A stretch of 64,000 bases of DNA from Pyxicephalus adspersus (taxonomy: Eukaryota; Chordata; Amphibia; Anura; Pyxicephalidae), in the NCBI RefSeq assembly GCF_032062135.1, contig NC_092864.1:18486332-18550331 (forward strand), given 5' to 3'. The position numbers and the translations under genes were made by a program. The notes under the pieces were generated by a model that saw nothing but the letters and a program-made list of their open reading frames with translations, was not told where the DNA came from and made no database searches. Shown one piece after another: positions 4,296 through 54,690 of this stretch (position 1 is its first letter; the number at the start of each line of letters is the position of its first letter).

Positions 4296-4518
4296 GGGCC
4301 TGATTTATTAAAGTTCTCCAAGGCTGGAGAGGGTACACGTTCATCTTTGACACTGGGTGATCCAGCAAACCTGGAATAGATTTCCTAAAATCATTTGCTA
4401 TTTGCTAGCAAATGATTTGAATCCTGAACCAGATCCATTCAAGGTTTGCTGGATCACCCAGCTTCACTGATGAAAGTGAATCCTCTCCAGTCTTGGATTG
4501 CTTTATTAAATCAGTCCC
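4296..4518. repeat. Foldback MITE, family A (copy 3, best preserved)
   Basis: It runs from GGGCCTGATTTATTAAAG to TTTATTAAATCAGTCCC. Left and right halves are near reverse complements across a centre at about 4400 (TTTGCTATTTGCTAGCAAA). The pairs CTGGGTGATCCAGCAAACC and GGTTTGCTGGATCACCCAG are almost perfect. At 223 bp this is the cleanest family member in the window. It has no transposase, so it must have been mobilised in trans. Confidence 0.85.
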
Positions 4519-5887
4519 TGGGGCTCCAGAAATATGGTAACCAGCCATGGCCATTCACATGGTCTTGTAAAGAGAACTTCAACTGTTTAATCCTATGTAA
4601 TTATTTTCCAAATGTTATACAAGGATATTTTGATAAAGCTATTTCGTCAGACTTGTTTTTAAAATTATGTATTTTGTAAGATCTTTTACAACTGTATGAT
4701 CAATGTTTAATTAGCAGTATGCTTAGAAACAGGGCACCAAACTAAAGTGTTGCTGAGAGGTGTGCTTTCTGATTTAAAAGAGAAAAAAAACATATGGTAA
4801 TACACACCTGGTCAGATCATCCTGTTTTGATCTTTCCACATCATGTTGGTAATATCAAAGTTGCAAAATGACTGCACAATAAACACATAAGTCAGGGGGA
4901 GGTTCCCTGTGAGCATTGCACTCAATTGAACTACTCAGTACTAAAGGGCATGCATTGCATGTAAAAAGGTTTTTACTATATAGACTACCAAAATATATGT
5001 TAAACTTTAGTTAACTTTAGGCGTGTGATCCCTAACATCACAAACAAAGGCTTATACCAGATATCCAGCCAAAAAAAGTATGGCTCATTAAAAAATACAC
5101 CCTTTACTCTCATTAGCTATCACCACATAAACTTATCGCCTCCTTTTGCTACTTCTTCTTATCATACTGCAGCTCTGCTATCAAAGACTGCAAAAGGCTA
5201 ATACCAGGTCATATTCAGGTACCTACACTGCTAGCATTTCAAACATCTTTTTAATGTTGCATGATAATAAATATAAAGCTGCATTATTATGTGTATTTAA
5301 TATCTGCCTAGAGTTCAGCTTTGAATTTATTCTGAAATTAAGCATGTGCCAGTGGTTTGGTATTAATATCTTAAATAGCCAATCTACAGTATATGCTGCC
5401 ATAGGAAACAAATATATATGTGTGCCTGTTGGTTGGTTCTTTGATTGGTTGATAGGACTGATACTGTATTGATATCCTCCAGCTCTCCTTGTAAATTCAG
5501 AAATGAATATACATGCCATAAACAAGTGTTTAATCCACCTGGCAATACCATGATACCCTTTTTTTGTTGAGTTTGCTACCCGCTTTTCTGTGCTTGTAAA
5601 ATCCTTGACCGCCAATCCACAAATGAGATCAGGCTTTCTACACACATTTTTATGGTACCCTCATAAAAATATCTGACCAACAATTCTATTTCTGCCATTT
5701 GGAAAAATAAAAGACTTTTCTGCACAACATATACAGTTAGTAACTGTAACATTTTTAACTCAACTTGCAAGAAGAAAGATCTACTTACAGTGAGAATGGC
5801 CCATCACCAGCATGTGAATTGCTGTACCAGGTGCAGCTGAGAAAATCAATAAAGTTCACATAGCACCTGAAATTTTCTGGCATATGC
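4519..5887. other. No gene supported
   Basis: Overlapping open frames on both strands at 5146-5770 reach 140 codons. They have no recognisable domain, lack splice context and are rich in low-complexity residues. I treat them as chance. Confidence 0.4.
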
Positions 5888-6055
5888 TCTGAATGAAAGG
5901 GAAAATGAAGCAAAAAAACAAATTAGTGGAAAGAACGAGAAAGATAAAAGAAAGGAAGGAGAGTAAAGATGGGAAGCGTAAAAGGAAGAAGAAAAGAGGA
6001 GAGAAGTGAGTGGAGAAAAAAAAGGGTAAAGAAGAAAGTAGAAGGAAGAAACATC
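5888..6055. repeat. Polypurine (GA-rich) tract
   Basis: About 165 bases are almost pure A/G on the plus strand (GAAAGGAAGGAGAG-type runs), abutting the (TA)n run at 6060. The reverse strand gives a spurious Ser/Phe/Leu-rich open frame. Confidence 0.85.
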
Positions 6056-8019: not shown

Positions 8020-8346
8020 TTTGTACTCACGTGCAATAATTGTCGTTGGAAAGGATCTTTCACAATTATTTCCAATGGCAAATGACTGCACGATGCATGA
8101 ATGAATGTGTACATACAGTACCATTCTGCTCTATAGAGAGGGGAAGGGGGAAAACGATGCAGGTGCACCCCACTACGCTCTCTCCCCTTCACTTCCATTA
8201 CGATCAGTTGTCATCCATGGATCCGCCAGGACAGTCATTCAGACAATGGATGACGAACACTGTACACACGCAAGATTCTCATGTGATATCCGCCCTGAGC
8301 AGATTATTGGACGGGAACCATTGCACTTGTGTACATAGCCTTAGCC
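8020..8346. repeat. CG-rich inverted-repeat element, family B (copy 1)
   Basis: Termini read GTACTCACGTGCAAT on the left and ATTGCACTTGTGTACATAGCC on the right. Internal hallmarks are TTGTCGTTGGAAAGGATC, a GAGGGGAAGGGGGA block, GGATCCGCCAGGACAG and CTGAGCAGATTATTGG. The same ordered blocks occur at 8836, 14304, 22530 and 27176. Confidence 0.8.
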
Positions 8347-8665: not shown

Positions 8666-8835
8666 CTGCACTCTTTTTGCTGTATTGTAAAGTAAATACT
8701 CATGAACAGCAACGCTGAATGCCAAGCAGTCTTCAACTATTGTATTAAAGTTCTTCTTTAGGTTAGACAAAGCAAATGGGTTAGCTCCCTGTCTATACTT
8801 TACTGTTCTGTGTCCTCTTGCTCTTGGTAGACTAA

Positions 8836-9145
8836 AGCTACGCACACACGTTCAATTTTTCTCACCCAATAATCGGCTCAGGGCGGAGAGAATCTGGCGT
8901 GTGTACAGCCCACGTCGTCTGTCCTGGCGGATCCACGGACAATGAACGACGAGCGATCCTAATGTAAGGGAAGGGGGAGAGTGCGCAGCAGGGTGCCACT
9001 CCGTCGCTCTCCCCCTCCCCTCTCCATAGAGCAGAACGGTGCTATATGTACAGCACTCGTTCATGCATCGTGAGGTTCTTATCATTCGAAAAGATTGTGA
9101 AAGATCCTTTCCAACGACAAGAATTGCACGTGTCTATGCGGCTTT
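8836..9145. repeat. CG-rich inverted-repeat element, family B (copy 2)
   Basis: Starts AGCTACGCACACACG and ends GCACGTGTCTATGCGGCTT, with the family order reversed relative to copy 1: CCCAATAATCGGCTCAGGGC, GGCGGATCCACGG, GGAAGGGGGAGAGTG, GAAAGATCCTTTCCAACG. Copies 1 and 2 are inverted about 500 bp apart, so together they could form a large foldback. Confidence 0.8.
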
Positions 9146-11262
9146 ATGCTTTTGGCACACAAAAATATCGTACAAGGACTGTGGCATACGTATAGACACT
9201 GTCAGTAGGCTTAAGTGTTATTCATCCACACCCCTTTACAACTCTCCAACTGTTAATTTTGCCCCAATCACCTTTCCTATGATACCACTGCTCCACTTGT
9301 GGTGCCTCAGGCACTGTCCCAATCCTTTCATTGTCACTGACTACAATACAAGGCAGATAGGACAGGTAGCACTAAGCATTATATTAGGATTTTTCCTAGG
9401 GGATTATTCCGTAGGGGAATAGAAGTTCCACTTTTTTCTGTAGTACTATAAATTTACAGACTAAGTATTTCTTTATATGATACTTCTGCTTTTATTATAA
9501 CTTGTGTTTCAGAATTGGAGACATAGCTCCTTTATCCATACCCCTAGCACCAGCATAGCACTGCTAATAAGAATGCCACCCCTGACTACAGTTCCGTAAA
9601 AAAACTTGTATCCAGTTATGTATTGGTTAAACATTGTTTGGAGGCATATTTGTAAAGCAGTCAATGTGACACCAAATATTTACTGGTGTTAAATCAATCA
9701 CTATCATTTAAAACATATGGATCAAGAAAATTCACCTGCATTTGGTTAATGCCACATTCACTGCTTAATAAATTTACATTTCAGTGTATTTCCAATCTAG
9801 TTAGAAAAAACACCCACTAAGTCCAATATTACTTTCATGTGATCCTCCAGGCAGTAACATTTCACTGGGGAAATAAGGGTGAAGACTCAAGCTTTCTTGC
9901 TTTGTCTAATATTGTTATTATGATGTACTAGAGTAAAGGGCACATAATTGATTTTAGAAATGTAATCATATTTCTTAATTGTCTAGACACCAGGATGGGG
10001 AGGAGAGGTGACTATGTCCACTTAGGTCATAATTTGTTAAATGTACCCATCAGGCTGGTAAAAACGATTGCATCACATTGCAAGGGGATACAATATGTGT
10101 TGTAGATACAGTTAAGATCTTGAGATTAGATTTTTTTTTACTGGCATTCTAATTAAGCTTTATTTCTTTAGCTATATTATTTTAGAATATTTTCCTCTTT
10201 GAAGTTTAAAGATCTACCATAGATATTGCAATGTCAAGTCTCAATATCTAATTCTCTATATGAATAAACACCAAAATTGGTTGTAGAAACTAGACTTCCC
10301 CATAGTGACCCATTCAGGCAAACCCCTGACAACTCATAAAAATGTATAGGTGGTTCAGCCTATAAATATGAAATAAGTGAAATCCCATTTTTTGACCTAC
10401 ACGCTTTAGAAAATGATGCAGTGTCAACTACTATTATGGAAGACCACATCCAATAGCCATTTTATAGAGAACTATTTTATATCATGTTAAAGCCAAAAGT
10501 TTGTAGAATAAAAAGAAACGCAGATGTTTTGACTTCATTGACTGCACGGTCGCCCCGGATTGACTGAAAGTCAGGCAAAATCACTTTCAATAGAAGCAAA
10601 AGAAGGCCAATTATTCATCTCTGCAAAGGTTTTCTTTAAATGACATAACACGTCATTCAGGTGCACTAGAGATGCTGGAGCGTGGGCAGATGTGATGATG
10701 CGGAAGGGGTGAAGGTATTGTCTCCCAAGCATATATAGTGCTGTATTGTCAGAGATCTGATACTCTCCTGAGATCCCCAGTGCACTGATCTATAATTTGC
10801 AAGCACCGTACAGCTGTTCTTACGACAATTGACCTTATTCTGACAAATGCTGCCTCGTTAATGTATAGAAGATCGCATCATCTACATCTATAAAGTCTCA
10901 TTGTTCACATCTTTTGGGTGTATGTAGATCATAAACTACGTGTGGTAACACCAATGACAGCAATGTCCATTTTTTGTATGAATAAAACAATTTTATCAAT
11001 TGTATCAAGTTTAAAAAATGTTCATGTTTTAGGAAACCAGTTCTTGTGTAAATTAGGAACCAATGCATTCCCATTTTTGCATATCACTCAAATAAATATT
11101 AATCTTTTCAAGGTGCAGAAATAATGACAAATCATCTAATGCCAAATTTTCAGCATAAAATTTAGGTCAAGGAATTGGTATCAAAACAAAAAAAGTAATC
11201 AACGCATCGTATAATTATACTTATATCACATCTTACTTTTTTGTATATTATTATGAATACAA
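9146..11262. other. No gene seen; complex unique block 10520-10900
   Basis: Positions 10520-10900 are less AT-rich and less repetitive than their surroundings (for example GAAGGCCAATTATTCATCTC and AACACGTCATTCAGGTGCAC). They have no ORF. This could be a conserved non-coding element or just unmasked unique DNA. The rest shows nothing. Confidence 0.3.
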
Positions 11263-13368: not shown

Positions 13369-14132
13369 CAGCTTATTAGGGCAGGGCATAGCAATATTGT
13401 ACATGAGTCAATAGACTCATTATAGGCTCTGTAACTTTTCATTCTATTTCAGATTGCCGAATCTGACTCTTCTGTAAGTTCACTTAAGTCATCTGATGGG
13501 ATACTCCAATCAATTGCTATAGGCAATATGGCTATTTTTCTTCAAAAATCAGCCCAAATGTGTACCCTGACTAAAAAAGGTACACATGATCTTAATTATT
13601 TTAGATAAGCCCCTAAGCAATAAAAGGAAGTAAGAAATGTGTACTAAACATGTGGTGTACAATGATTTTATCAGTAAACATTTTACAGAGGTTAAGAAGA
13701 ATTAACCATGGCCGTCCAAAGTCATTTTTGTGCTAACTAAACCAACAAGTGTTTGTCCAAAAGCTCACAATATGCTCAAATGTACTATAAAATGTTCTAC
13801 CTACAACATTTTGTTATTGTACACATATTTAATATTCATTATTTATTCATAGCACCCCACTGTCCTGGCTTGAAGGGATTGTTCTACTTTTGGCCCCAAA
13901 TCCCTCTGTTCCACCCTACTTCTTACAGAGCTACATTTTTGGTCTGATGTGTAGACTTCTAAATGAAAATGTAACATTTAGCTACCAAAATGTTACAATA
14001 CAATACAATAATACAAAATAATGTTTACCTACTTTTATTGCCAAAAGAATGTTAGGTTTGGTTCTCAATAAACAATGTATTACTTTGTTATCCTGGGTTT
14101 TATAAATGTTTTCACTAAATGAATAGATTTAT
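12911..14132. other. No gene; (TA)n at 13336-13366
   Basis: Contains a (TA)n microsatellite and otherwise undistinguished AT-rich DNA. Confidence 0.45.
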
Positions 14133-14962
14133 ACAGGTAGTCCCCGGGTTAAGGACATCCAACATACGGACGACTCCTAGATACGAATGGGCTTCCCTGC
14201 TCGCTCTCTGTGCAGGACGGAGGATTGATAGGGAGGAGGTTTGCATGACTTCTTTGCAAGAAGAAATCCTTTGCTAAACACAGTTGAGGTTGTGGGTGAT
14301 CTTAAGCTACGTACACACAGCAGATTTTTATCGCCCGATAATCGGCATCGGCCAAATATCGGGCGAAAATCTGCCGTGTGTACAGTCGGTGTCGTCCATC
14401 GTCCGAACGACCGTCCTGCCGGATCCACGGACGATGGACGACAACCGATCCTAATGAAAGGGAAGGGGGAGAGCGCGCAGCAGGGTGCCGCTCCGTCGCT
14501 CTCCCCCTCCCCTCTCCATAGAGCATGAACGGTGCTGTATGTACAGCACCGTTCATGCATCGTGCAGTCCCTTGTCGTTGGAAAGGATCGTGAAAGATCC
14601 TTTCCAACGACAAAAATTGCAAGTGTGTACGCAGTTTTAGGGAGGTGAACTTTCTGCAGCCTCTTGTAACTCTTTAATGACCAAGACAAGCTCTGCAGTT
14701 GTTTCTTTTTGCATATCAAAGCACAGCTTGCTCCAAAAGATAATGAATGTCTAGGCCCCACAAGGTTTTTTTTTAAATTATTGCTTTGTTTCTGATTAAC
14801 TCACAGTGAGGATTTTATACAGTAACTGACACATCACTGCCTAATATTATGTTGAAACAAACCTCTGTCCTAAAAATAATGTACCTGTTCCGACTTACAT
14901 ACAAATTCAATTTAGGAACAAACCTACAGTCTCTATCTCGTATGTAACCCGGGGACTAACAG
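14133..14962. repeat. Family J element (ACAGGTAGTCCCCGGGTTA ends), disrupted
   Basis: Outer ends are inverted: ACAGGTAGTCCCCGGGTTA on the left and TAACCCGGGGACTAACAGT on the right. Without the nested insert at 14304-14640 it is about 490 bp. A second, uninterrupted copy lies in opposite body orientation at 38995-39445. TA flanks fit a Tc1/mariner-like non-autonomous element, but that is inference. Confidence 0.75.
14304..14640. repeat. Family B element (copy 3, full length) nested in family J
   Basis: Starts AGCTACGTACACACAGCAG and ends AAGTGTGTACGCAGTTTTA. It contains an internal hairpin at 14522-14560 (GCATGAACGGTGCTGTATG / CAGCACCGTTCATGC) and a second at 14576-14611 (CGTTGGAAAGGATC / GATCCTTTCCAACG). 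Strong CpG content contrasts with its host. It is the best preserved family B copy here. Confidence 0.85.
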
Positions 14963-17900
14963 TAATGGAAATATGAAAATTACTCTGGTCCATAAAGATG
15001 GAAAAATGCAAGCAGTTTTTTTAGTCCACTTTTTATAATTAAATCAGATCTGAATAAAAAAAAATAAAGTGTATTTCCAATCAATCACATTTTTCGCTTT
15101 TTAACTGGTTGATCAAATGCGTTGATATATCTCCATCCGGAGTACACATATCATGTATATTAAAGATCTAGCTTATTCAGCTGATCACTTTTTCTCAAAA
15201 AGGGCTTGGATTGAAAGAACCGAATGTAGAGCATGTGACCGATCAAAATCTGATTGGAAAGTTGATGGCAATGGTTTATAAAGTACAAAATTGACAGCAG
15301 ATGTGCCCATGTGTCCCTAGTGTATTAGGGTACAAAGGCTGAGTTAGTTAGTTACACTTTTCTCATACACAAAAGGGACCCTTCCAGTTTAGATAATCAA
15401 GTTGTACGCACTAACTTATCAGTGGTGTATCAAAGTGTGCGAATATATAATTATGTGTACAGTTCTTAGTTTACCCATAAGAACTGGTCAAAGTCCACAG
15501 TTGCCACATATCAATGTATTTGTTGTTAGGTAGATTAGAAAATGGTCAGAACCTCCGATTTTCATTGCTGACTGTCGCCATTTTTGGCTTTTCTGCATAC
15601 TACTAATTCAATTTTATGAATTATGTTCCTGGTATTTCTCCTCTCATATCTTAATATTTTTGTTGCCAAGGCAGGAGGTATGGAAGTTGCTAACTAAACA
15701 GAAAAGCTGAAATCTTGGAACATAATGTAAGTATAATTTAGGAACTGAAAGTGTATTTTCACTTTAAGCATCTGAGAAGTTTGGGGGTAGGCCCTGAAAA
15801 ACTTTACCAAAATACCTTGAGCATACACTATATGGCCTGTTGTCTCTCCCCTTCAACCGTTCCTCTGAACGATATTGTTGGAAAATCAAAGCTGTCAAAG
15901 TGACCTCTGAGGTTTTCTCCATATCACAGCTGTAGTTGTGGTAAAAAAATGAAAAAAAAAAACTTTGCAATGCTTTGTACTAGAATTGTAACTGTAGTGT
16001 CATTATTAACTTTAGAAAGTAAAAAAAATGGAAAAAAGGGGGGATTTTTGTGGGCAAAAATTGTTTATATTAATTGCTACTATGCTAATGCTTAACTATG
16101 TTAATGCCGGAGTTTTTTTAGATTAACCCTCTATGGTAGAAATGATGCTCTATTGACATCAGTTAAGCACCAGGATAGATATAATATTTACATAATTCCA
16201 GGATCACAATATTGAGGTTTCTCTTGACAGTCTTTTTTACTCCTGACATTATTTTCCACTAATTTATCTACTTAATACTAACCCTCTACAAATTGCTCAA
16301 TAGATCTTAATATCCCCTTAATATCCCTTTACAAAGGCAAACAGGGCGAAAAGCGTCGGGACCTGAGACCTACCTTTGATTATGTATATTTATGCTACAT
16401 CTTAAGTTCACCTTAGGCTAAATTTGTCTAGTCTTTAACAGAATACCCCAGGACCTAATGGGGGTATAATAAGCATCTAATTGTTACTGCCTCATTACCT
16501 GTGTTGTAAATGTTCAATTGGTGAAACCTTTCTGTTTATTGTACATGTACTACCTGTATATCTTTTTATAAACAGGAGCACTACTTGTTTTAAAACGAAC
16601 ACTGGTCAAAATAACTTTTTTTTGTCTACTATATATTATAATATATAAATTCTACTATAAAATGCTTCTGCAGGGTGTGAAGAAGTAGAGGTTTACTGGG
16701 AAAGATGAAACCACAGTTTATTATTCTATTACTTAGAACAGAGAATTCTGTAAATAAAGTTTTATACCATGTATTCCTTTATATATTTTACCTGTAGTTC
16801 GTAGTTCAAAAAATGCAGAATAACTAACTAAGGCTTTTTCAGGGGAGGTTACAAATGGAGATACATGAATCACAGTGTAATACAAGCCCAAAAACTATTA
16901 CAAATAAGTAAAACATAAAGAAAGAGTATGTCCATTATAATATAGTCAAAAAATTGTTCTTATGAAAGGAGATGGCCATGTCAATACCAATGAAGATTAC
17001 TGAAGTAACTGAATGGCTGAAAAGTTGGTGTATAAAATTATTCTGAAAGGGAGCATAGAAGTGAGTCAGGAGACAAAACTTTTTACATTTTCTGCATTTT
17101 CTGAACTATGGACTCCATAAAATTATTTATATAATGGAATATATGGTAAAAGACTATTTTGGGTTCTCTGTGCTGATTATTATATTAAACTGTGGTTTCA
17201 TCTTTGCCAGTAAACCCCTCTTTTTCAGATGGATGCTTTGTCCGCATCTTTAGGAAATATTAACAAGACTAATGCGATTCATCCGGGAGTGTAATACTTG
17301 TGCCCACATAGAAGAAACTGCAGTAGCCATTCCACACTAAAGGCATTATGTTTTTTGATGGCACTAATAAGGGGGTCTACAACTCTAATGATCTGATTGA
17401 AGTTGGGTGGTTTTGTATTATTTGGTTTTGTTTGGGTTGGCATTGTATTCTGTTCCTTCTGCGGCTTCTTCACATGTATGAGCACAAGTATTGAGGGGAG
17501 AGCACACTCCCAATCTCAATGGTCTTAAAAATATTTCCTGAAGAAGCTGAACTGGTAGAATTGAATTACATTAGACCTTGACCTTTCTGTCACCATGTCA
17601 TCGATCACTTTGTAGTGTACTAATGCATCAATGACTCATTGAACTGATGAATTCCAAGAAAATGATGTCTCATACTACATTGTATGTCACTTTGCAATCC
17701 TCAGCTGGCTAAAGTAAATAGGAACTTGACCTTTAAATTCAATCCAACGATGCTAAAAGGAAGTAAACATAAAACACTGCAGACTCCTATCTACAATTCC
17801 TTAAAAATCAAATGAGAAAATGGTAGTAAAGAACTATTTCCTTGGAAATATAGGGGTAGTTTGGGGTTTTGTAATGCAGACAGTTTCAGTTGTTGTTCCT

Positions 17901-23863: not shown

Positions 23864-24070
23864 CTGATTTATTAAAGCTCTCCAAGATTGGAGAAGTTAG
23901 ACTATCAAGGAAGAACCTGGGTGATCCAGCAATCTTGGAAGAGATGTGGTCTAGGTTTGAAAATATTTGCCAACTACTAGCGAATGTTTTGTAAGAAGGT
24001 TTGCTGGATCTTCCAGGTTCTCCAATGATAGTTTATCTTTTCTAGTCTTGGGGAAATTAATAAATCAGGC
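23864..24070. repeat. Foldback MITE, family A (copy 4)
   Basis: CTGATTTATTAAAGCTCTCC at the left and TTAATAAATCAGGC at the right, with GGTGATCCAGCAATC and GCTGGATCTTCCAGG inside. It sits at the junction between the two copies of the tandem duplication. Confidence 0.75.
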
Positions 24071-24084
24071 TAAATGTCTTATTT

Positions 24085-27175: not shown

Positions 27176-27492
27176 TTCACACTTGCAATAATTGTCGTTG
27201 GAGAGGATCTTTCATAATCCTTTCTAAGGACTAACGACTGTACAATACATGAACGAGTTTTGTACATACCGCACCGTTCTGCTCTATCGAGAGGGGAGGG
27301 GGAGAACAAAGGAGCAGCTCCACGCTTCGCTCCTTCATCCTTCATTACGATTGTTCATCGTCCTTTGTCAGTGGATCCAGGATGGTCATTGGGACAATGG
27401 AGGACGAGCCCTGTACACAAGCCAGATTCTCCTCTGATATCGGCACTGAGCCGATTATCGGAAGAGAACAATTGTACGCGTGAACCTAGCCT
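27176..27492. repeat. Family B element (copy 5)
   Basis: Left CACACTTGCAATAATTGTCG and right CGCGTGAACCTAGCC. The internal order matches copy 1: GAGGGGAGGGGGAGAAC, GTGGATCCAGGATGG, GAGCCGATTATCGG. Confidence 0.8.
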
Positions 27493-30114: not shown

Positions 30115-30495
30115 NNNNNNNNNNNNNNNNNNNNNNNNNNNNNNNNNNNNNNNNNNNNNNNNNNNNNNNNNNNNNNNNNNNNNNNNNNNNNNNNNNNNNN
30201 NNNNNNNNNNNNNNNNNNNNNNNNNNNNNNNNNNNNNNNNNNNNNNNNNNNNNNNNNNNNNNNNNNNNNNNNNNNNNNNNNNNNNNNNNNNNNNNNNNNN
30301 NNNNNNNNNNNNNNNNNNNNNNNNNNNNNNNNNNNNNNNNNNNNNNNNNNNNNNNNNNNNNNNNNNNNNNNNNNNNNNNNNNNNNNNNNNNNNNNNNNNN
30401 NNNNNNNNNNNNNNNNNNNNNNNNNNNNNNNNNNNNNNNNNNNNNNNNNNNNNNNNNNNNNNNNNNNNNNNNNNNNNNNNNNNNNNNNNNNNNNN
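30115..30495. other. Assembly gap (N)
   Basis: 381 undetermined bases, about 65 bp upstream of the mariner-like copy. Confidence 1.
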
Positions 30496-30560: not shown

Positions 30561-32135
30561 CAGGCTGTCCCAAAAGTCACTATACACTTTTAATGAATTT
30601 CTAAAAATTAAAAAGAAACTGAGTTTATTCATATTTTTAGCATCAACAAATGAGTCGTTGCAGTTTTACTTGCTAGGGCTGCCATCACGTTCAAACGCCT
30701 TGAAAACTAGTTGTATACCTCCACATGAGCACCTCCGTTTTTGCCAACTTTCAGCCACCTTCGGACAAAAGCCTCTCCGATGTTTTGCAGCATCTCTTCC
30801 CCAACCTCACTGCAGGCCTTGTGGATTCTTTCCTCACGTTGTGACAGGTTACGGGTCTTGGTGGCATACATCTTGCTTTTGATAAAGCCCCACAAAAAAG
30901 TCACAAGGTGTAAGGTCAGAGGAGTGCAGAGCCCATCTGAGGGGACCCCTTTGACCCATTCATCGGTCAGGAAACTTGATGTTCAGGGAATTTCTGACTA
31001 ACTTGGCAAATAAGGGAGGGGCTCCGTCATTATCAACAAGGTCCCCCCTTGCCTGAAGTTGTGGCACAGCAAACTCCTGCAGCATCTCGAATCTCGGCCA
31101 GGACGCTATCTGCATGGAGTTTGCAGGTTCTCCCCGTGTCTGCGTGGGTTTCCTCTGGGTACTCTGGTTTCCTTCAACATCCCAAAAACATGCAGTGAGG
31201 TTATTTGGCTTCTCCTCAAAATTGGCCTTAGACTACATTAATGACATATGACTATGGTAGGGACATTAGATTGTGAGCTCCTTTGAGGGACAGTTAGTGA
31301 CACGACTATCAACTTTGTACAGCGCTGTGTAATATGATGGCACTATATAAATACTGTGTAATAATAATAATAATAATAATAATAATCTCCAGGTAAATTT
31401 CCCCTGTAACGGTGGTCATGTTACTGTATGCATTGCGGAAGAAAAATGGTCCAATCAGCCCAGTGCTTGACATTGCACACCAAACCACCAGCTTCTGAGA
31501 GTCTCGTTCATCCTCGATAATTACTGCTGGGTTTGATTTTCCCCAAATTCGACAGTTGTGACAGTTAACCCGACCAGAGAGATGAACCAAAAGTTTTCCA
31601 AGAACTGAGGGTATTTTTGATAATGGTGTAGGAGTGATTCACACATTTCCAATCGAGCATCATAAGTCGGTATGTGTAGAGCTTTATCACTCTCCGAAGC
31701 ATCCGCTGAATTGAGGTTTTGTTGATGCTGATTTCCAGTGCAGCCCACCAGATGGACTTTTGCCTGCTCCAGGCATTCAGTGTTTTCATCGATGGTGGTA
31801 GTAGTAGGCCTTCCGATGCATGGTTTGTCAAGAAAAGATTCTGTTCTAAGAAACCTGCCATGGATAGCATAAATTGTCTTAGGCATTGGAGCAGTGTGGC
31901 GGCCATAAAGCTTCTCAAACTTGTGCTAAACTGCAGTCGGTACTGAAAAACTTGCCAAGCAGCAATTTTGCAGGGTTGCTCCAATGTCAATTGACGAGCC
32001 ATAGTTAAGGGAATGATACGCTTACAAAAACTGCAAAGCCTAAGTAGTCATATTCTGATGGCCACAAGACTCTCTGAATGATACCTGGAAAAAAATAGAA
32101 AAAAGGAAGTGTGTAGTGACTTTCAAGACATACAT
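30561..32135 (-). pseudogene. Broken mariner/Tc1-superfamily transposon with transposase remnant
   Basis: The left end is CAGGCTGTCCCAAAAGTCAC preceded by TA, and the right end has the decayed complement GTGTGTAGTGACTTTCAAGAC at 32109-32130. The minus-strand transposase starts MARQLTLEQ at 32002 and is frameshifted repeatedly. Pieces recognisable from this DDE_3-type family are HLSGRVNCHN, RIWGKSNP, ERDSQKLVVWCAMS and IGPFFF, which sit around the second catalytic region. The helix-turn-helix N-terminus is also present. A SINE is inserted at 31089-31384. The enzyme cannot be made. Exact clade is uncertain; relatives are best known from arthropods. Confidence 0.8.
31089..31384 (+). repeat. 5'-truncated SINE inserted in the mariner-like copy
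   Basis: GCATGGAGTTTGCAGGTTC, GTGTCTGCGTGGGTTTCC and an (AAT)n tail match the SINE at 24506 but lack its A box. ATCTC flanks both sides (31084-31088 and 31385-31389), and the transposon sequence resumes exactly afterwards. The SINE is therefore younger. Confidence 0.75.
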
Positions 32136-32175: not shown

Positions 32176-32410
32176 NNNNNNNNNNNNNNNNNNNNNNNNN
32201 NNNNNNNNNNNNNNNNNNNNNNNNNNNNNNNNNNNNNNNNNNNNNNNNNNNNNNNNNNNNNNNNNNNNNNNNNNNNNNNNNNNNNNNNNNNNNNNNNNNN
32301 NNNNNNNNNNNNNNNNNNNNNNNNNNNNNNNNNNNNNNNNNNNNNNNNNNNNNNNNNNNNNNNNNNNNNNNNNNNNNNNNNNNNNNNNNNNNNNNNNNNN
32401 NNNNNNNNNN
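32176..32410. other. Assembly gap (N)
   Basis: 235 undetermined bases, close to the right end of the mariner-like copy. Confidence 1.
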
Positions 32411-33560: not shown

Positions 33561-35843
33561 ACACATATTAAGCTTTTCGATGAGATCAGTTTATAAGTGT
33601 AAAATTTCCTCCAACTGTGACATTTGCAGAAATCAGCCCACAGCCTAGTGTTAGAATAGGGGACGTTTTACACCAAAGTCACCCCACCTACACATGACTT
33701 TTGTAGACCACCCAAAGCCTTGCTGATTGGTAATGAAACAGTGGCCTTGTGCTTTTTTTGAACTTTTCATATTACTCATTCATACTAACCTATATGTATC
33801 CATTTGCTAAATGGAAACAAATAATTGTCGTATTAATTAGTGTATACTAATATATGAATATATACATAAATCTATGAGAATTATATGACGAGTCAAGACA
33901 GGATGAAAGCTGTCCATAAACATTTATAATATTTTTTTTGGTCATAAGGCCATTCCACTGATAGCTCATTCACTCCAGTGGATGGGATGAAAAGTTGGGG
34001 AACAGCCCAGTTAAATGTCTTGTATAAATCATGTGATCAAGCCCTCATCCTATCATGGAATGTTATCAGCAGGGTTTTGCACCAGTGGGCGCCTATTTTT
34101 TTGTTTCTTTCAGTATTTGTAAACTAAAACAAAAAAGCAGACAGAGACATTAATACTGGTCTTACACATACTAATAAAAAATATATTGTTGATCAAATCA
34201 AAGATGTTTGCTGAGCTGTAGTAAATCACACTCAAACAAGTTTGCCCATCACTAATGTGGAACAAGGGAATACATTGCAAAGAGGTCAAGAAGAAGAAAT
34301 AAAAAAGGAAGACGGCTTTTCTACTTATATTCTACTGTCCTTCTCAGTGTCTACTACCTTTATTTTACAAGAGGGGAAACCAAAAGAAACAGGATTGTCC
34401 TCCGTGTGGCTGGACTGCGAGTGGAGGGGGTTTGATTAAGGTCAGTTCTTGTCCCCCCATCCCTCGCCACTCAATAGCCAGGTGGACGCCTCTATGAAAC
34501 GATCTCACTCCTCAGGCAGTGATTGTTTTTCTTGTTACCGTGTCGAAATTGTGATTTCAGGGAGCAAGGAACTTGTTTGAAATTTTCTCCTTGGCAAGGA
34601 GAAGGAGACCTTCTTAAAGGTGTTCTGCTCTTAAGGAGCTGCGCGATGTTGATGTGTTACCATATTAATTAGGACTGTACATCACCCAGGGATCCCAGAT
34701 TTGGTCAAATTTATCCATTGTGTTGTTAAGTGTACAAGTGAGCTTGTCATTCATTTAATTCATTTTTGAGAAAATGGGGTCTAGGGGAATGGTAACATAC
34801 TTCCATGCCTTGTACCAATGTTATGCAGGCAGACAGTGACATGTGTTTGGTCAGTTTCTGTGGTTTAGTACAAATTTTGCAGCGGATCTGCTCAAATATA
34901 CCAGGTCTAAGGTCTTCTACTCTGGACATGGAGCTGGCAATTGAGGGTATCCAAACCACAAAGTGAAGGAAATTGAAGACCAAGTCAAATTAGGAAACAA
35001 TCAGTGAGGGGAACTAGATGAAGTGTTTTATGATTAATAAAGGTAATAACAGGCATTTTATGGTTTCTGCTCCAAGGTTGGACCTTTGTTGAGCAACTGT
35101 CCCCTTTTATCATTAACGTGCGTGGGAGAGCTAAGAACTCCTTTGTAGACCCCAAGAGAAAGAAATGATCAGTTAATGATCCAACTGCTATTCAGATTCT
35201 TGTGATTATTTAAAACAACAAAAGCAGCAACACTTATAAAATCTTTTATTTGCAATGTTCACTGTCACATAAATCCATGGAACATAATGGCAAGTCGTTT
35301 TTACACAACAATTAAAAAGCAAATCACTTTATAGAACAAGCTAAACATAGAAGGAATTGCATGCAAGTAAAAAGAAGACAATAAGAGGGAAGAGTCATTT
35401 AACTTTCTTGCTTCTGGAGGTTTTGCTACCAAGTGTAGTGAACCTTTAGCAGCATGTTTTGTTAAATGTTTCTTTTCTGTTGCTTCCATGACTTATTATA
35501 CTTAGGTAAATATTACAAAAAGGTCAATCTTTTTTTTTTCACATTTTTCCACTTTTGAAATATACATGTCAGGGAGATTTCAATGAAAATATAGATCTTA
35601 AACTACAAGGTCATCACCTGGCTTTGATGTGTGTTGGTGGTTATTTTATAGTCATGTGCAAGGCAGCAAGAACAGTGAGTGTAATTAGCAGGGATAGGTT
35701 TGCTATCAGTTCTAAGCAAATCTGTATTTTGCAGGTAAAAGCAACAGGTTTTCTTTATTATCCCCTTCCCCAGCACCATCTACTTTCTTGTCTTTCATTC
35801 CCCCACCCCTCCATGTATCTGCTGCAAGAAAGCAGAACACATT
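33561..35843. other. No gene supported
   Basis: Short open frames at 34242-34439 (plus) and 34747-34983 (minus) carry no recognisable motif. Nothing else seen. This is downstream of il21r, so it could include part of a long 3' untranslated region, but no evidence shows that. Confidence 0.3.
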
Positions 35844-36058
35844 GGGCCTGATTTATTAAAGCTCTTCAAGGCTGAAGAGGATTCACTTCATTAGTGAGGC
35901 TGGGTGATCCAGCAAAAAAGGAATAGATTGTTTCAAAGTAATTTGCTAGCAAATTTTTTAAATCTTGACCAGATCCAATTCAGGTTTGCTGGATCACCCA
36001 GCTTCACTTATGAAAGTGCATCCTCTCAAGTTATGGAGAGCTTTATTAAATCAGGCCC
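35844..36058. repeat. Foldback MITE, family A (copy 5)
   Basis: GGGCCTGATTTATTAAAGC on the left and CTTTATTAAATCAGGCCC on the right, with CTGGGTGATCCAGCAAA and TTTGCTGGATCACCCAG internally. It is 215 bp and nearly as clean as copy 3. Confidence 0.85.
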
Positions 36059-37396: not shown

Positions 37397-38212
37397 CTAT
37401 TCTATTAGGGTTTCTGTTACAGATTCAGCTGGTATAGAATGACAGGGCACCCACTGTTTCACATAATTTCTTTCATATACGCCCTCTTCTCCACTGTAAG
37501 AGTCTGAATTATGTTGTTTTGATGGTGTGCCACTGTTTCCAAAATCACTGTCCACTGGGCTTCCACATTCAGAATCACAGAAACCACTGTCTATAGTGTC
37601 CAAATCTAAGCAAATTCTCGGATAACGAAAGTCAGCACTATTTGCTGAGTCTGGAGAAAGGGAATTATAATTGTCATTGTAAAAAACATTTTCATCATCA
37701 TCCTGGCTTGGAGAATCTTGAAACTCCCATCCTTCTGGTGAAGCTGGCAACAAGTCCAAAATATTTAAATTGGGTCCTAGGCAATCTTCTTGCATTTGGA
37801 AGTTGGAGTGAATTAAGGAGCCTGTGGTAGCCTGTGAATCTAATTTACGGTCAAGCATGAGGTCCAACATGGTGCTGTTGTCACTGTCAAGGTTAACACA
37901 AGGCTAGCTGTCATCTCCACTCCTATTAATGTCAGCTTCAGGACCATCTCTGGTGTTAAAGTGAGGACAAGCCTCAGTGCCTATTGGTAGGCTCCCAGAG
38001 TCCTTGTCTAGAACAGCTTTATTACAACCACCGTTAGTGCAGTCTTGGCTGTCTCTATTTGGCCATGAGTTGGTAAGTAAAAACTTGTGTTTCTCCAGGC
38101 TGTTGAGATCCTGTCTTGATGCAGCCTTCAGCAAACTCTGGCTGTAGACTTCAAATATTTCTGGAAATTCTGGAAATGGTTTTGCTTGGTAGTAAGAAGA
38201 ACCCAGCCAGCT
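37397..38212 (-). CDS. il21r: il21r last exon: cytoplasmic tail of interleukin-21 receptor, with internal stop
   Basis: Terminal coding exon of a class I cytokine receptor. The acceptor is TTGTCTTACAG followed by AGC (38212), phase 0, and the final TAG is at 37397-37399; 272 codons in all. In order it shows SWLGSS just after the DFK junction, EIFEVYSQS (residues 19-27, human IL21R has LEVYS), a Leu-rich ILDLLPASPEGWEF segment, LDLDTIDSGF with CGSPVDSDF, and a C-terminal YVKQW. Human IL21R has LDMDTFDSGF, CSSPVECDF and YLRQW in the same places. IL2RB shares only the junction region, so IL21R is the best call. The tail recruits STATs after JAK1 phosphorylation, and YVKQ fits the YxxQ STAT3 motif. 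An in-frame TAG is codon 103 (37904-37906). Whether the gene is functional is unknown. Confidence 0.9.
37904..37906 (-). other. il21r: In-frame TAG inside the il21r tail exon
   Basis: The frame upstream (ending GDDS) and downstream (PCVNLDSDNS, then MLDLMLD) is the same, with no splice sites around. Both sides align to the IL21R tail. The stop would leave 102 residues of this exon and delete 168, including DSGF and YVKQW. It may be a nonsense allele, a pseudogene lesion or a base error. Confidence 0.85.
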
Positions 38213-38994
38213 CTGTAAGACAATAAATCACTGATTACGTGGCAGTAAAAAGATCTTTTATAAGTCAATAATGGGGATTTCCAAAAGGCTTGAAATCCCC
38301 TATATGTCTGGGTCCTTCATGGAGAACCATGAAAGGTCTTATCTGCAAATTGGTATGATTCCATCTATTTTTTTCTATTATTTAGCTAAACCACTTTACT
38401 TCATATAGGGTGTTCCTAGGATATTGGTAATATTGTTTTTTCTAGAATGAACATATAACTTTATTATTGTCTGTTCTATATTTATCTCTCTCACTGAAAC
38501 TCCATACAATGTTCTACATAGTTAGATAAGCCTAATCTAGCATATGTGTATTTGCTGAATATTTTGTATTCTATAATATATTTAACAAAACAGTTAAGGT
38601 TAGCCTGCTTACCATAAAAATAAAAGGATCCCAAAATTGCACTTCCTGGCTGGGAGTAGTTAATATGAAATATGTAGATATTATATTTTACATTTACCTG
38701 ACTAGCAAAAACATTTAATTCAAAATTATGAACAAAATAAAGAAACTATCTTTAAAAACAATATGCATTCAGTAAAACCTGCAAACAAAGGAAATATGCT
38801 AGTCACGCAGATGTAACCTTTCATCTTTATGTCTGCTAGAAAACAATGGTTAATGGTTACTGTTAGCTTGTATTTTGTATTAACCTCCTGCAACCACATC
38901 CTTCATGTTTGAAGTGACATTGACAATAATAACCCAGTGGCTGCAAAATGTTTTTTTATATACATTTTTTAGTGGAATGGTTAATACAGGTAGC
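38213..38994 (-). other. il21r intron (3' part)
   Basis: Intron between the Box 1 and tail exons. No further exon or repeat seen in this part. Confidence 0.7.
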
Positions 38995-39445
38995 CCCCGT
39001 CTTACATACTAGTTAGGGACTATAGGTTTGTTCTTTAGCTGAATTTGTACATAAGTCGGAACAGGTACATTATTTTAATAAATGCAATTAGGAGCGATGT
39101 TTGTCTCAACATATTATTAGGCAATGTGGTGTCAGTTACTGTATAAAATCCTCACTGTGAGTTATTCATAAACAAAGCACAAAAAAAAACTTTATGGAGC
39201 CTAGACATTCATTAATGTCTGGAGCTTTGGTATGCAAAAAGACTGCAGAGTTTGGCTTTGTCATTAAAGTTACAAAAGCTTGCAGGAGAGCTCAGTCTCA
39301 GCTGTGTTTAGCAAAAGATTTATTCTGCAAGTCATGCAGACCGCCCCTTCAAGCCTCCATGCTGAACAGGAGCGAGCAGGGAAGCAGCGTTCGCATCTAG
39401 GAGTCGTCCGTATGTCAGATGTCTTTAACCTGGGGATTACCTGTA
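38995..39445. repeat. Family J element (uninterrupted copy) in the il21r intron
   Basis: TACAGGTAGCCCCCGTCTTA at the left and ACCTGGGGATTACCTGTA at the right are inverted. The body is the reverse complement of 14133-14962 without the 337-bp nested insert: TGTTTAGCAAAAGATT and AAGTCATGCAG here correspond to the insert flanks there. Confidence 0.8.
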
Positions 39446-41247
39446 TATTAATTGTTGAATATTGAAGAATAAAGATACATTTTTTAACCTTTCTATCTAT
39501 TTTTCTTTATATTTCCAGTATTGGTCACAGATATTGTGTAAAGGTTAGATTTGTATGTTCACAGACAGTTTATTTTACCAAAAAGAATGCACATAATCAT
39601 ATCTTTTTGTTGGTATGTGTCATTACAAAACAAAAGTAAAGCTACCCTGTAAAAGGAAATGCTGTGTAATTACCTTTCCAGTTTCAAATAACCCACCTTA
39701 GCTACCACCACCACAATCTATGGTTCCTCTTGTTGGTTTGTAATGATCTGGAAATGAGTGGATATAACCCCAGCGAGTGTCAGCGCCTAATAATAGACAA
39801 CTGTTGTGCCCTGGGTACCCTTTGTTTTATCTGCTTAAAGCTGAACCCCAGCCTTACCTTTAGACTTGTACAGTTGTACAGCTTTATTTTCTGTACTGCC
39901 ATTGCTTTCTCTGAGATATATATATATATATATATATATATACTATACTGCACACTGCACGATTTACACAATTGTCACTAGAAGATGCACACTGCAGATA
40001 GTGCCCACATCCTTTATTGCTGGAAGACAGTTATCTAGTGCTATCCTCCTCAGTCTTATGGTCCCTGCACTGCCTCTTTCATTCGTTGAATTTTATTTCA
40101 TATGTTGCACCTATAAACCCTCCAGCCTGACATTGAATGTTGGGGTAGATCAGGCAATGTATGGAAGAGGAGACAGAATGTATGGAAGAGGTAGTGTTTA
40201 ATTTGTTTAGGCAGATGTGAATGTATGTCTGTGCATACATGTATGAATTTATGTGTGCGCATGTATGTGTTTGATATATCCATGTATAAGGGAGGGTTGG
40301 GATACTGAATTGGATTCTTTTGGGGAGGTGGGTAGAAGGTGGTGGAAGTGGTTTGTTCTGCCTAGGGCACCAACAAGCCTAGAAATTACCCTGTTTCTTA
40401 TCATTAAATCTTTACAGAACTAACATTGCTAAATAAGGATATAGTGCAAAATTGCCACATAAGATTTTTTTGTGTATGGTTATGTGCCATGGTTTGCAGG
40501 CATGCTATTGCTATTTTCTTCTGTTTAAAGACTTCCTCTGAGGAAGTGGCAGGATGCTGACATAACTTTTGTCTGCAAAATGTACAAAACAATTTGATTC
40601 ACACATATGTTGTGGTTACTTTAATTGCTGGAGTTTTAAACCTTATAATATAATATGACCATAGACATTAAATAAAAGCATCTCCCATGTACAAGTGTAC
40701 AATCTATCATAGCTCCCCTTTAATCACATCTGCCTTTTTCTGCACCAATTGTCAAAGCACTTGCTGTCTCCTCCCTTGGAAGGGCAGGGTTCTCCCCATC
40801 TTAGCTAAATTTGTTCTATCAAATGTATTGCTTTTTGTATTTTGTAGCATTTGTACTGCTGAATGCACAAGTGCATATCACAAATTATCAAAGGGGCTGT
40901 TTATTGTTTCTTTCTTGCATGTAAGCATGCCAAGTAAAAAAAATGTAAAGATTGTAAAAGCTTATGAGAAGAGGAAGTACTTTTTTTTTGTACAGATCAC
41001 ATGATTTCTTGCTTATGATGCTTATGTAGATCCAATTATAGTATCATTATCATACTGCAAAAACAAGCTAAGCATCAAGCTTCGTTACGCAGGTCTAGGG
41101 TATGTTACCCTTTGAACTTAGCATATTCATTATCTCACTCCTACAGACCCTCTCTATATAATACCATTCTCAGTGCTAAAAAGTCACTGGATGCTACATC
41201 TACAAATGAGTAATAATGGAACATTTTAGAATATACATGTTTTTTAC
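39446..41247 (-). other. il21r intron (5' part)
   Basis: A (TA)n microsatellite sits at 39915-39942. No exon-like segment with minus-strand splice sites was found. Confidence 0.6.
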
Positions 41248-41332
41248 CTTAAAATCTCCATGATGTACCATGTAGAGTGGCTTAAAGAAAGGTGCAGGGT
41301 TGGGTATTAATACCCACACATTCTTCCATAAA
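41248..41332 (-). CDS. il21r: il21r Box 1 exon (juxtamembrane JAK-binding segment)
   Basis: An 85-base exon. The acceptor is TTTTCTCTTGTCAG followed by T, entering in phase 2, and the donor is TTTTAAG|GTAAAA in phase 0. It encodes LWKNVWVLIPNPAPFFKPLY and then MVHHGDFK, 28 whole codons. Human IL21R reads LWKKIWAVPSPERFFMPLY then GDFK at the same place, with the same break before the tail exon. The Pro-x-Pro core with flanking hydrophobics is Box 1, which binds JAK1 in this family. The tyrosine in KPLY matches a conserved human one. The IPNPA core also resembles IL4R Box 1, as expected for related receptors. Splice phase joins cleanly to 38212. No coding damage is seen here. Confidence 0.85.
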
Positions 41333-43275
41333 CTGACAAGAGAAAACAGAAAATAGACAATGACATTTGCTTTTATCATTAGCAAGGTTGACAAAAGGTC
41401 ATTTCCTCTGCTTTAAAGTACTCTCATCAAAAGAGAAGCGTTGGCATTGCCATTGTTGGTCTACTTCTGAAGACTCATGTCCTGAGAATGACCACCAAGC
41501 AGGTAACATTTTCCAGAAGGAAATCAACAATGGTAGGTTAAAAAAGTATTTTTTTGCACAGCGGTTTAGGAAACTAAATGTCATCAATTTAGGGTTTAGA
41601 TGTATATAATTGCAATGAGTACTCTCCTAGATCAGTAACTCAAATTACATATTAACATACTAATATTTAGGCATCAGCAAGAAAGACAAACAATTAGTTT
41701 TCTCAGAGTAAGTAAGACTAAGAGGTTTCATTTTCTCTGCAACCCACAGGATTCTCCCCTAATTTGCAGCACCAAACCCACTTCTTTATTATGGTAACAA
41801 AGCTTAGAAACGGGTTCGAAAAAAAGGAGATTGATGTTCTTGACATTGTAGAAAGATTACCTGAATTAAATGTATTCTCCCTCAAGAAAAAGTTTAACAA
41901 GGTATGGACACTGGAAGGGCTACAAGCACCCCAAGCTGCTAGATACCAGATACCACATGTTTATAGATACTGTTCAGATGAAATAGAGATGCAAAGTAAC
42001 ATTTTTACTTGTGTATCTACCTTGTTTCATTTGAAACTGAAAAGCATTAGCTTCAGTTTGCAATTGATGTATATAAAGCAACCTAGCAAATGTTTTATTT
42101 GAGTAAAATGAGTTTTTATTTAATTTCCTATTAAACTTTAATGCATTTTATTCAGCTGTAATAAACTTTGTATTACATTCTCCCCTAAGCCAGATCTGTC
42201 ACTAACATCCTCATAGGTGTTTTCCTGCAAACTCTGTTGGCAAAACACTGCAATGTTAAAAATGTGCCTAAAGAAACTTGCTGGAAGCCTTGGTAAGCAT
42301 TTTTTTTGATTTCCCCAAAAGTTTTTTCCCATAATGCAGCTTTTTGATAGCAGGAGGTGGTTTGTATGTGTCTGTGTTGGACAACCAAATAAGCAGACTT
42401 TGCATTTTAGCACAATATTTGCTTAAACTATTGTTTCTATTACTATTCTATTACTTTTTTACATTTCCTTTTACCAACTGTAATTAAACTCTAAATAACT
42501 CTTTTATATATATATTTTTAATTATTTTTAAGTATTTGAAGGGGTGATCTTTCCCTTTTTTGTATTTACTGCTCCATGGGATACATATGTCACATATCCC
42601 GGGAAGCTGTGGGCTGCTCCTTCTGCACATCTTGGGCATGCCTAGAAGGGGCTTTCATGTGCCATGAGATTGGTTCTTTTTCTTTTTATTCTTACATTTT
42701 CCAGAAGGTGCATCACCCAAAAAGGCAATTATGTTGTTTCATTGCATTTTATTGTTAGGCTTTCTAAAATGTAAATAAATATAATGAGTGCATGCCGAAT
42801 CCACCACCGGCCTGGTACTGCTATATGACCATTATGTGTGGGTCTCCATGTTGGAACATTCATGTATTTAAAATTATGAAAGCAGCTGGAGAAGTATGAA
42901 TCTACCAAATAGGGTACATAGGCCACCAATCTGACAGCAAAATATTGCCACTGAAGCACATCAAAAATAAGAGACAGGTGATTTAACCAATTAGCATACA
43001 CACAAAAGCAAAAAATTAGTTCTAAATGGACAGGGCCATTACACATTTTACCCGTGATGGATTAGTTCACAAAGATAAATATGAGCGTCAATGAGTCATT
43101 TCTTTGAAACATTTATTGCCAGTCAGTATTTGAGTCAGCACACGTTTTATGTTTAGAGGTTTTGTATTGATGTGGCTTAAAGGGGAAAAAAATATCTACA
43201 GTGAACCTGTGGTAAAAGCATCGGAACCCAAGTAAGACCACATTGAAAGCACTAAGTATGTAGCATTTTACTTAC
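41333..43275. other. Expected place of il21r D2/TM exons; none identified
   Basis: A transmembrane exon ending two bases into a codon should precede the Box 1 exon, and D2 exons with WSxWS should precede that. I searched both strands for two Trp codons nine bases apart and for hydrophobic segments with flanking splice sites and found none. A 112-codon plus frame (41764-42102) and a 105-codon minus frame (42729-43046) are present but unrecognised. A family I-like fragment lies at 42540-42730. Confidence 0.4.
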
Positions 43276-43366
43276 CTGCCATTGTTAAGCTGCAAAAAGA
43301 TAACAACAGAACCACTATTGCTTTACTTCTCCTCTTCATTTTTCTAATGACTTATGTTGTTTTTTC
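43276..43366 (-). CDS. Candidate signal-peptide exon of a secreted or membrane protein
   Basis: The acceptor is TTTTTTATACAG, followed by 27 bases with stops in all three frames that would be 5' untranslated. ATG at 43339-43337 then gives MKRRSKAIVVLLLSFCSLTM and A, ending at a textbook donor GCAG|GTAAGT in phase 1. The shape is a signal peptide: basic n-region KRRSK, 15-residue hydrophobic core, small residues at the end. Phase 1 after the signal peptide is usual in class I cytokine receptors and matches the phase 1 entry of the D1-like exon at 45012. However, it lies downstream of that exon on the minus strand, so they cannot join in the present order. It may be il21r, another gene, or chance. 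Confidence 0.35.
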
Positions 43367-52029: not shown

Positions 52030-52181
52030 CAGTGGTCGCCAACCTTTTGGACATCATGGACCACTAATTTCACGGACTCCGGACACACAACCCCCCCTCT
52101 GGTCTGAGCCTGCAAGCCGTATGGGAGACATAGTCCGCAGTTCTGGCTGGAGAAAAACCCCCCACCAGTTGGCGACCACTG
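52030..52181. repeat. 152-bp hAT-like MITE with 8-bp target duplication
   Basis: CAGTGGTCGCCAACC at the start and GTTGGCGACCACTG at the end are perfect inverted repeats. The flanks ATCTAGAG (52022-52029) and ATCTGGAG (52182-52189) match at 7 of 8 positions. It is related to 26124-26366. Confidence 0.9.
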
Positions 52182-53830: not shown

Positions 53831-54690
53831 CCACCTAAGCGATAAGTCCAACCTTGGTACAGGCTTCAAAAAGTTACAATTATCGATAAACCCGAACTTT
53901 TCTCACTGTATGAAAATACAGTGAGAAAAGTTCCGGTTTATCGATCACTTACCTGGTCCCGCTGAGATCATCCATCGTCGTGTTCCAGTGTCGTCCTCCA
54001 GCGTCGGGTGTCCTCTCCGGGAAGAAGAAGCCGGCTGGCTTCTTCTCCCTCCGTGCGTGTACGTCGGCGCGTACAATGACGTCGGCGCGTGTGTGGGAAA
54101 TTCAAACTGAAACTCATTCAAACACATTTTGTATTGGATTGAATACAAACTCCTGTATCCAATCCAATTCAAAATAATTCAAAATAGATACAAAGTATGT
54201 AATTGGTAAATTCAAACTCTCATTTTGTATTGGATTGGATACAGGAGTTTGTATTCAATCCAATACAAAATGAGAGTTTGAATTTTGTTCTCATTTTGTA
54301 TTGGANNNNNNNNNNNNNNNNNNNNNNNNNNNNNNNNNNNNNNNNNNNNNNNNNNNNNNNNNNNNNNNNNNNNNNNNNNNNNNNNNNNNNNNNNNNNNNN
54401 NNNNNNNNNNNNNNNNNNNNNNNNNNNNNNNNNNNNNNNNNNNNNNNNNNNNNNNNNNNNNNNNNNNNNNNNNNNNNNNNNNNNNNNNNNNNNNNNNNNN
54501 NNNNNNNNNNNNNNNNNNNNNNNNNNNNNNNNNNNNNNNNNNNNNNNNNNNNNNNNNNNNNNNAACTACTAGAACCCTGTTCAGACATATTTCTGTAAGT
54601 TACAGGTCTACAATTTAAAAAAAAAAATTTCATGAAAAACTGTAACGCTTTTGGAACAGAAATCTAGACCTCAGTGTAACGCCCAGGTGG
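53831..54690. repeat. TTAA-flanked element, family F (copy 2), with assembly gap
   Basis: TTAA lies at 53827-53830 and again at 54691-54694. It starts CCACCTAAGCGATAAGTCC and ends TAACGCCCAGGTGG. The terminal 120 bases match copy 1 (TTTCTGTAAGTTACAGGTC, CGCTTTTGG). A hairpin at 53882-53945 (CTTTTCTCACTGTA / TACAGTGAGAAAAG) occupies the position of the copy 1 hairpin but has a different sequence. A 28-bp perfect inverted repeat lies at 54210-54237 and 54256-54283. Confidence 0.8.
54306..54563. other. Assembly gap (N) inside a palindromic tract
   Basis: 258 undetermined bases, directly after repeated TTTTGTATTGGA palindromes that would defeat short-read assembly. Confidence 1.

What the first reader, a model, noticed from the sequence alone, without database searches (positions are those of the whole stretch)
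37397..38212. il21r tail exon interrupted by an in-frame TAG
Both sides of the TAG at 37904-37906 keep one frame and both align to IL21R. The truncated product would keep the membrane-proximal EVYS tyrosine but lose DSGF and the YVKQW STAT site. That would uncouple JAK1 binding from STAT3 recruitment, or mark a dying gene, or simply be a base error.
Basis: partly seen in the sequence, partly recalled or inferred. Interest (0 to 1): 0.75.

Follow-up and report, generated by a model that had tools for sequence, protein, structure and literature searches.

The report
Broken frog interleukin-21 receptor gene
This stretch of frog DNA holds an interleukin-21 receptor gene that, as assembled, is broken twice: a stop codon sits where relatives have a conserved tyrosine, and the outer cytokine-binding half of the receptor is missing, so it is probably a recently lost gene or copy, or a faulty assembly.

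Summary
On the minus strand one frame runs from a consensus splice acceptor (38214-38213) to a normal end (37399-37397), broken only by TAG at 37906-37904. Both halves are IL21R tail (68-71% identical to Mantella and Rana). All 18 frog relatives aligned have Tyr at the stop, as do 33 of 35 relatives, so TAG is one base from a Tyr codon.

The signal-peptide exon (coding 43339-43276) and Box1 exon (41332-41248) are present, but the exons for both cytokine-binding domains are not found anywhere in the window, nor any reliable transmembrane exon. Profile pieces score at most 12.4 bits against 32-90 bits for Rana controls. The 1.9 kb between the flanking exons has no N, and joining those exons shifts the frame.

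So the "JAK1 without STAT3" receptor is not supported: no surface receptor can be made as assembled. The downstream tail is well conserved (1 private change in 48 conserved columns), so any loss is recent. Best reading: a recently inactivated il21r gene or partial copy (0.6). Main rival: assembly faults (0.28). The own genome could not be searched.

The parts
43276..43366 (-). il21r signal-peptide exon: acceptor CAG just above 43366, ATG at 43339-43337, coding to 43276 (phase 1), donor GTAAGT
   Evidence: 85% identical over 20 aa to Rana temporaria IL21R residues 1-20; splice sites read from sequence
41335..43269 (-). interval in which the D1, D2 and transmembrane exons should lie; no match to D1 or D2 above noise and no N run
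   Evidence: profile and tblastn tests with controls; N runs lie only at 30115-30495, 32176-32410 and 54306-54563
41248..41332 (-). il21r Box1 exon (LWKNVWVLIPNPAPFFKPLYMVHHGDFK), splice sites intact
   Evidence: 66.2 bits to the frog profile; sequence
37397..38212 (-). il21r last coding exon (cytoplasmic tail), 271 codons (one of them the internal TAG) plus the end stop
37904..37906 (-). in-frame TAG where all 18 aligned frog relatives have Tyr (GDDS-Y-PCVNLD in Rana)
38141..38152 (-). EVYS motif, upstream of the stop
   Evidence: translation
37625..37627 (-). Arg codon where relatives have Gly in FGYPRI; the only private change among 48 conserved downstream columns
37580..37591 (-). DSGF motif, downstream of the stop
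   Evidence: alignment A1; TIDSGF in 35 of 35 relatives, a set found by similarity to this tail
37451..37465 (-). YVKQW STAT-site motif, downstream of the stop
   Evidence: alignment A1; YV[KQR]QW in 35 of 35 relatives, a set found by similarity to this tail

Best explanation
This is the il21r locus, or a partial copy of it, of a ranoid frog, and it was inactivated recently. One lesion removed the exons for the two cytokine-binding domains and probably the membrane segment. Another, in unknown order, turned the conserved Tyr codon of GDDSYPCVNLD into TAG by a change of its third base. If transcribed, the signal-peptide exon joined to the Box1 exon shifts frame and ends after 29 codons, so no receptor is made. 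Shown here: the stop, its alignment to Tyr, the lack of any ectodomain match in the window, the frameshifted join, and the conserved tail. Inferred: that both defects are in the animal rather than in the assembly, and that the loss is recent.
For: There are two separate disabling features in one gene. Pieces of the frog ectodomain profile score at most 12.4 bits anywhere in the window on both strands, while six Rana pieces of the same size score 31.9-89.6 bits against profiles built without Rana. In twelve 40-residue tblastn tiles the window's best is 25.4 bits, while Rana against Mantella gives 37.0-72.4. Signal-peptide exon, Box1 exon and tail are in order on one strand. The signal-peptide to Box1 join gives 29 residues and then a stop. 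Recency: no frameshift and one stop in 816 bp. In a neutral simulation the probability of at most one lesion is 0.05 at d = 0.08 (indels at 5% of substitutions) or 0.03 at d = 0.06 (indels at 10%). The downstream part keeps 47 of 48 conserved columns.
Against: No reads or second assembly were seen, and the window has three N runs (235-381 bases), so the assembly is unfinished. The tail looks almost fully constrained: 1 of 48 private changes downstream against 0-5 of 47-50 in five relatives, and a terminal branch of 0.216 against 0.230 for one ranoid relative, 0.131 for the stem of the Rana pair and 0.122 for Mantella. A live gene badly assembled would look just like that. The transmembrane exon is weakly conserved (control 31.9 bits), and tblastn alignments of the Box1 exon run on into the intron end at 41403-41333 opposite the membrane segment. 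I take that as chance hydrophobic reading of a pyrimidine-rich acceptor tract, but it leaves the membrane exon undecided.
Confidence: 0.6

Rival explanations
1. Assembly artefact: the gene is intact in the animal; a local misjoin dropped the ectodomain exons and the TAG is a base error.
For: The tail is conserved as in living genes. The splice sites of the three remaining exons read as intact. The window holds N runs. No hit above 70% identity was found, so nothing from the same species confirms either defect.
Against: It needs two independent faults in one small gene. The join between 43275 and 41333 carries no N. Stop-creating changes are only 113 of 2430 possible single changes in the tail, so a random base error would rarely give a stop.
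Confidence: 0.28
2. Living receptor with a shortened tail: membrane receptor that binds JAK1 by Box1 but lacks the STAT site, with the ectodomain exons lost only from the assembly.
For: Box1 and EVYS precede the stop; DSGF and YVKQW follow it.
Against: No ectodomain or reliable membrane exon in the window. The DSGF and YVKQW motifs are in 35 of 35 relatives found, although those were found with the tail as query, so short-tailed forms would be under-sampled. The downstream part is still conserved, so truncation has not been tolerated for long.
Confidence: 0.07
3. Stop codon read-through or recoding keeps the full tail in use.
For: The frame stays open and conserved for 168 codons after TAG.
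Against: All 18 aligned frog relatives encode Tyr, none a stop, and the ectodomain is missing anyway. Recent origin explains the conservation. No recoding signal was searched for.
Confidence: 0.03

Closest known systems
Interleukin-21 receptor (IL21R) of Rana temporaria (P0010) and Mantella aurantiaca (P0011)
   Same: Signal peptide (matched to Rana only), Box1 exon and tail in the same order; 68-71% identical tail; EVYS, DSGF and YVKQW kept
   Different: Rana residues about 24-226 have no counterpart found in the window, 227-262 have no reliable one, and the conserved Tyr is TAG
Unitary pseudogene / recent gene loss (general kind, recalled)
   Same: Exon loss and a nonsense change in a gene whose relatives are intact
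   Different: Whether an intact copy exists elsewhere in this genome, and whether reads confirm the lesions, is unknown

Membership tests
Functional IL21R | Signal peptide exon | tested here: met
   43339-43280, 85% to Rana over 20 aa
Functional IL21R | Two cytokine-receptor domains with WSXWS-type motif | tested here: not met
   no match above noise in six frames of the window; a loose WSXWS pattern matched twice, both on the plus strand, at 52048 and 61653, outside any receptor match
Functional IL21R | Transmembrane segment | tested here: inconclusive
   best 2.8 bits against a control of 31.9; Box1 alignments extend into the hydrophobic reading of the intron end at 41403-41333
Functional IL21R | Box1 JAK-binding motif | tested here: met
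   41331-41248, 66.2 bits
Functional IL21R | Open tail with the STAT-recruiting tyrosine (YVKQW) | tested here: not met
   motif present in the DNA but behind an in-frame TAG
Unitary pseudogene | Disabling changes in an ortholog that is intact in relatives | tested here: met
   in this assembly: TAG plus missing exons, against intact relatives
Unitary pseudogene | No intact copy elsewhere in the genome | not testable with these tools
   search of the window's own assembly did not complete in 8 tries
Unitary pseudogene | Lesions confirmed by reads or a second individual | not testable with these tools
   no reads held; no protein above 70% identity found in three searches

The most novel reading that the evidence does not exclude
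A ranoid frog has lost the IL-21 receptor altogether, very recently, while close relatives keep it. This would be a natural test of whether amphibian B-cell and T-cell help depends on IL-21.
Probability: 0.3. Interest if true: 0.55.

Novelty: new member of a known kind. Interest (0 to 1): 0.35.

Why it matters
IL-21 receptor signalling is a main helper pathway for antibody responses in mammals (recalled). A frog that lost it recently would show whether amphibian immunity can do without it, and could bear on comparisons of disease susceptibility. If the defects are assembly faults, the lesson is practical: a single in-frame stop should not be read as altered signalling before checking that the rest of the gene is there.

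Tried and rejected
Tail against Pfam at E up to 1 and against the PDB at E up to 10: no match, so neither helps identify the tail. Self-comparison of the 1.9 kb interval for a transposon that could explain the loss: only two short repeat matches of 34-42 bases, not informative. Search with the upstream piece alone, to find an independent copy of the stop: 3 candidates, none at E up to 0.01. dN/dS: not possible, as I had no relative's nucleotide sequence. Branch lengths: the window branch is not exceptional; the test is weak. The D1-like exon at 5888-5789 was considered as a displaced il21r exon and rejected: 12.4 bits against 67.0 for the Rana control. Paper searches pairing il21r terms with Xenopus, amphibian, frog or pseudogene listed 14, 2, 6 and 0 papers, none about frog il21r loss by title or abstract start. 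One of them, PMC10828426 on infected toads, holds the word il21r once and was not opened. An in-exon intron removing the TAG, and a recoding signal, were considered but not tested.

Full report
Observation. Window 38212-37397 (minus) begins after the acceptor TTGTCTTACAG and reads open for 102 codons, meets TAG at 37906-37904, and stays open in the same frame for 168 codons to a normal stop at 37399-37397. The upstream and downstream halves lie in one collinear tblastn match to Rana temporaria IL21R residues 290-562 (E 5e-122, 71% identity) and to Mantella IL21R (E 1e-117, 68%).

What the stop replaced. Eighteen frog relatives were aligned: 15 named species and three unnamed public-contig proteins (P0001, P0002, P0019) that the tree places among frogs. 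The stop column is Tyr in 18 of 18, followed by Pro in 18 of 18; DD[SG]YP is in 14 of 18. In all 35 relatives returned by the searches the column is Tyr in 33; the others are one gap (a lizard isoform) and one Arg (a teleost). For distant relatives the alignment is uncertain: the Polypterus protein has Ser there, where 8 of 9 relatives have Tyr, but Tyr. TAG differs from either Tyr codon by its third base. I take this to be the tyrosine called Y397 in human IL21R. A paper lists six human tail tyrosines including Y397 and Y510 (PMC4063596, one passage seen), but the match to Y397 is recalled, not aligned here.

The rest of the gene. The searches returned 16 long frog IL21R proteins (P0010-P0025, 513-562 aa). 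Fifteen of the 35 relatives were compared with the window by tblastn; the printed answer was cut, so I saw 7 queries in full and an eighth in part. Rana finds the signal-peptide exon (43339-43280), and all seven find the Box1 exon (41331-41248) and the tail exon, in order on the minus strand. For the ectodomain they show only scattered weak matches (E 0.18 or worse); the one that recurs is at 5877-5806. Some Box1 alignments (Rana, Mantella, Mixophyes, Gastrophryne) run on into the intron end at 41403-41333 opposite the membrane segment; this is the pyrimidine-rich acceptor tract and I take it as chance. A profile from 14 of those 16 frog proteins covering residues 21-262, and pieces of it, were then run over six frames of the whole window. 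The whole profile's best was 6.4 bits; the best piece scored 12.4 bits, at 5874-5818, and the best of every other piece was 3.9 bits or less. As a control, six Rana pieces of the same size scored 67.0, 72.6, 88.5, 89.6, 83.8 and 31.9 bits against profiles built without Rana; a seventh, 2-residue piece scored 4.5 and is not informative. In twelve 40-residue tblastn tiles the window's best was 25.4 bits (again the exon at 5.9 kb), while Rana and Mantella tiles matched each other at 37.0-72.4 bits. Tiles cut by an exon boundary would score lower than these controls. Rana and Mantella share 155 of 212 ectodomain residues and 201 of 271 tail residues, so the ectodomain evolves about as fast as the tail and should have been seen. 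The membrane part is less conserved (13 of 26), so its absence is not established.

The interval. The signal-peptide exon's donor and the Box1 exon's acceptor are 1.9 kb apart with no N between them; N runs are at 30115-30495, 32176-32410 and 54306-54563 only. Joining the two exons directly shifts the frame and gives 29 residues followed by a stop. As assembled, the locus cannot encode a ligand-binding membrane receptor whether or not the TAG is there.

How old. Downstream of the stop, the window keeps 47 of 48 columns that are conserved in the other frogs; the exception is Gly to Arg at 37627-37625. Upstream (Box1 and first part of the tail) it keeps 20 of 21. Five relatives (Rana, Mantella, P0002, Mixophyes, Gastrophryne) have 0, 0, 1, 2 and 5 private changes in 47-50 downstream columns. 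Identity to Rana is 76% (99 of 130, Box1 exon included) upstream and 72% (120 of 166) downstream of the stop; to Mantella it is 70% (90 of 129) and 71% (120 of 168). In a tree of the Box1 and tail region the window groups with Rana (support 82) among ranoid frogs. Its terminal branch is 0.216, against 0.131 for the stem of the Rana pair, 0.230 for P0002 and 0.122 for Mantella; fitted separately it is 0.25 upstream and 0.20 downstream. In a simple neutral simulation, with indels at 5% or 10% of substitutions, having at most one lesion in the tail has probability 0.66 or 0.44 at d = 0.02 and 0.12 or 0.03 at d = 0.06. Any inactivation is therefore recent compared with the split from Rana. The same data fit a gene that is not dead at all but badly assembled.

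Mechanism and verdict. The idea that the stop uncouples JAK1 from STAT3 needs a receptor on the membrane, and the window shows none. Two independent disabling features favour real, recent inactivation of this il21r gene or copy (0.6). An assembly with two faults is next (0.28). A living short-tailed receptor (0.07) or read-through (0.03) is unlikely. The decisive test, a search of the species' own genome and reads, could not be made: the genome search did not answer in 8 tries, and no protein above 70% identity was found in three protein searches, which were limited by length to about 150-476, 177-562 and 59-187 residues.

Literature. Seven paper searches listed no paper whose title or abstract start concerns frog il21r loss. 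Passages of PMC9465101 concern gamma-chain cytokines and other receptors of the family in amphibians; the paper's text has no IL-21R hit. Only listings and passages were seen.

Noticed in passing
5789-5888 (minus): A well-formed exon, reading HMPENFRCYVNFIDFLSCTWYSNSHAGDGPFS, flanked by CAG and GTAAGT, resembles the first domain of a gamma-chain family receptor (weak IL2RB_N1 match, 13.9 bits against a cut-off of 31). It is probably a neighbouring receptor gene on the same strand, perhaps il4r (recalled, not tested).
   Followed up: partly
8023-8339, 8832-9146, 14301-14639, 27178-27492; flanking parts 14130-14288 and 14654-14964 recur at 38985-39447: Dispersed repeat of about 315 bases, copies 73-79% alike; stretches beside the 14.3 kb copy recur (77-83%) inside the last il21r intron.
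   Followed up: no
237-461, 2507-2732, 4290-4518, 23864-24071, 35839-36058: A second dispersed repeat of about 220 bases in both orientations, copies 68-81% alike.
   Followed up: no
31312-32047 (minus): Overlapping open stretches that look like a broken transposase (recalled resemblance); no Pfam match at E up to 1.
   Followed up: partly
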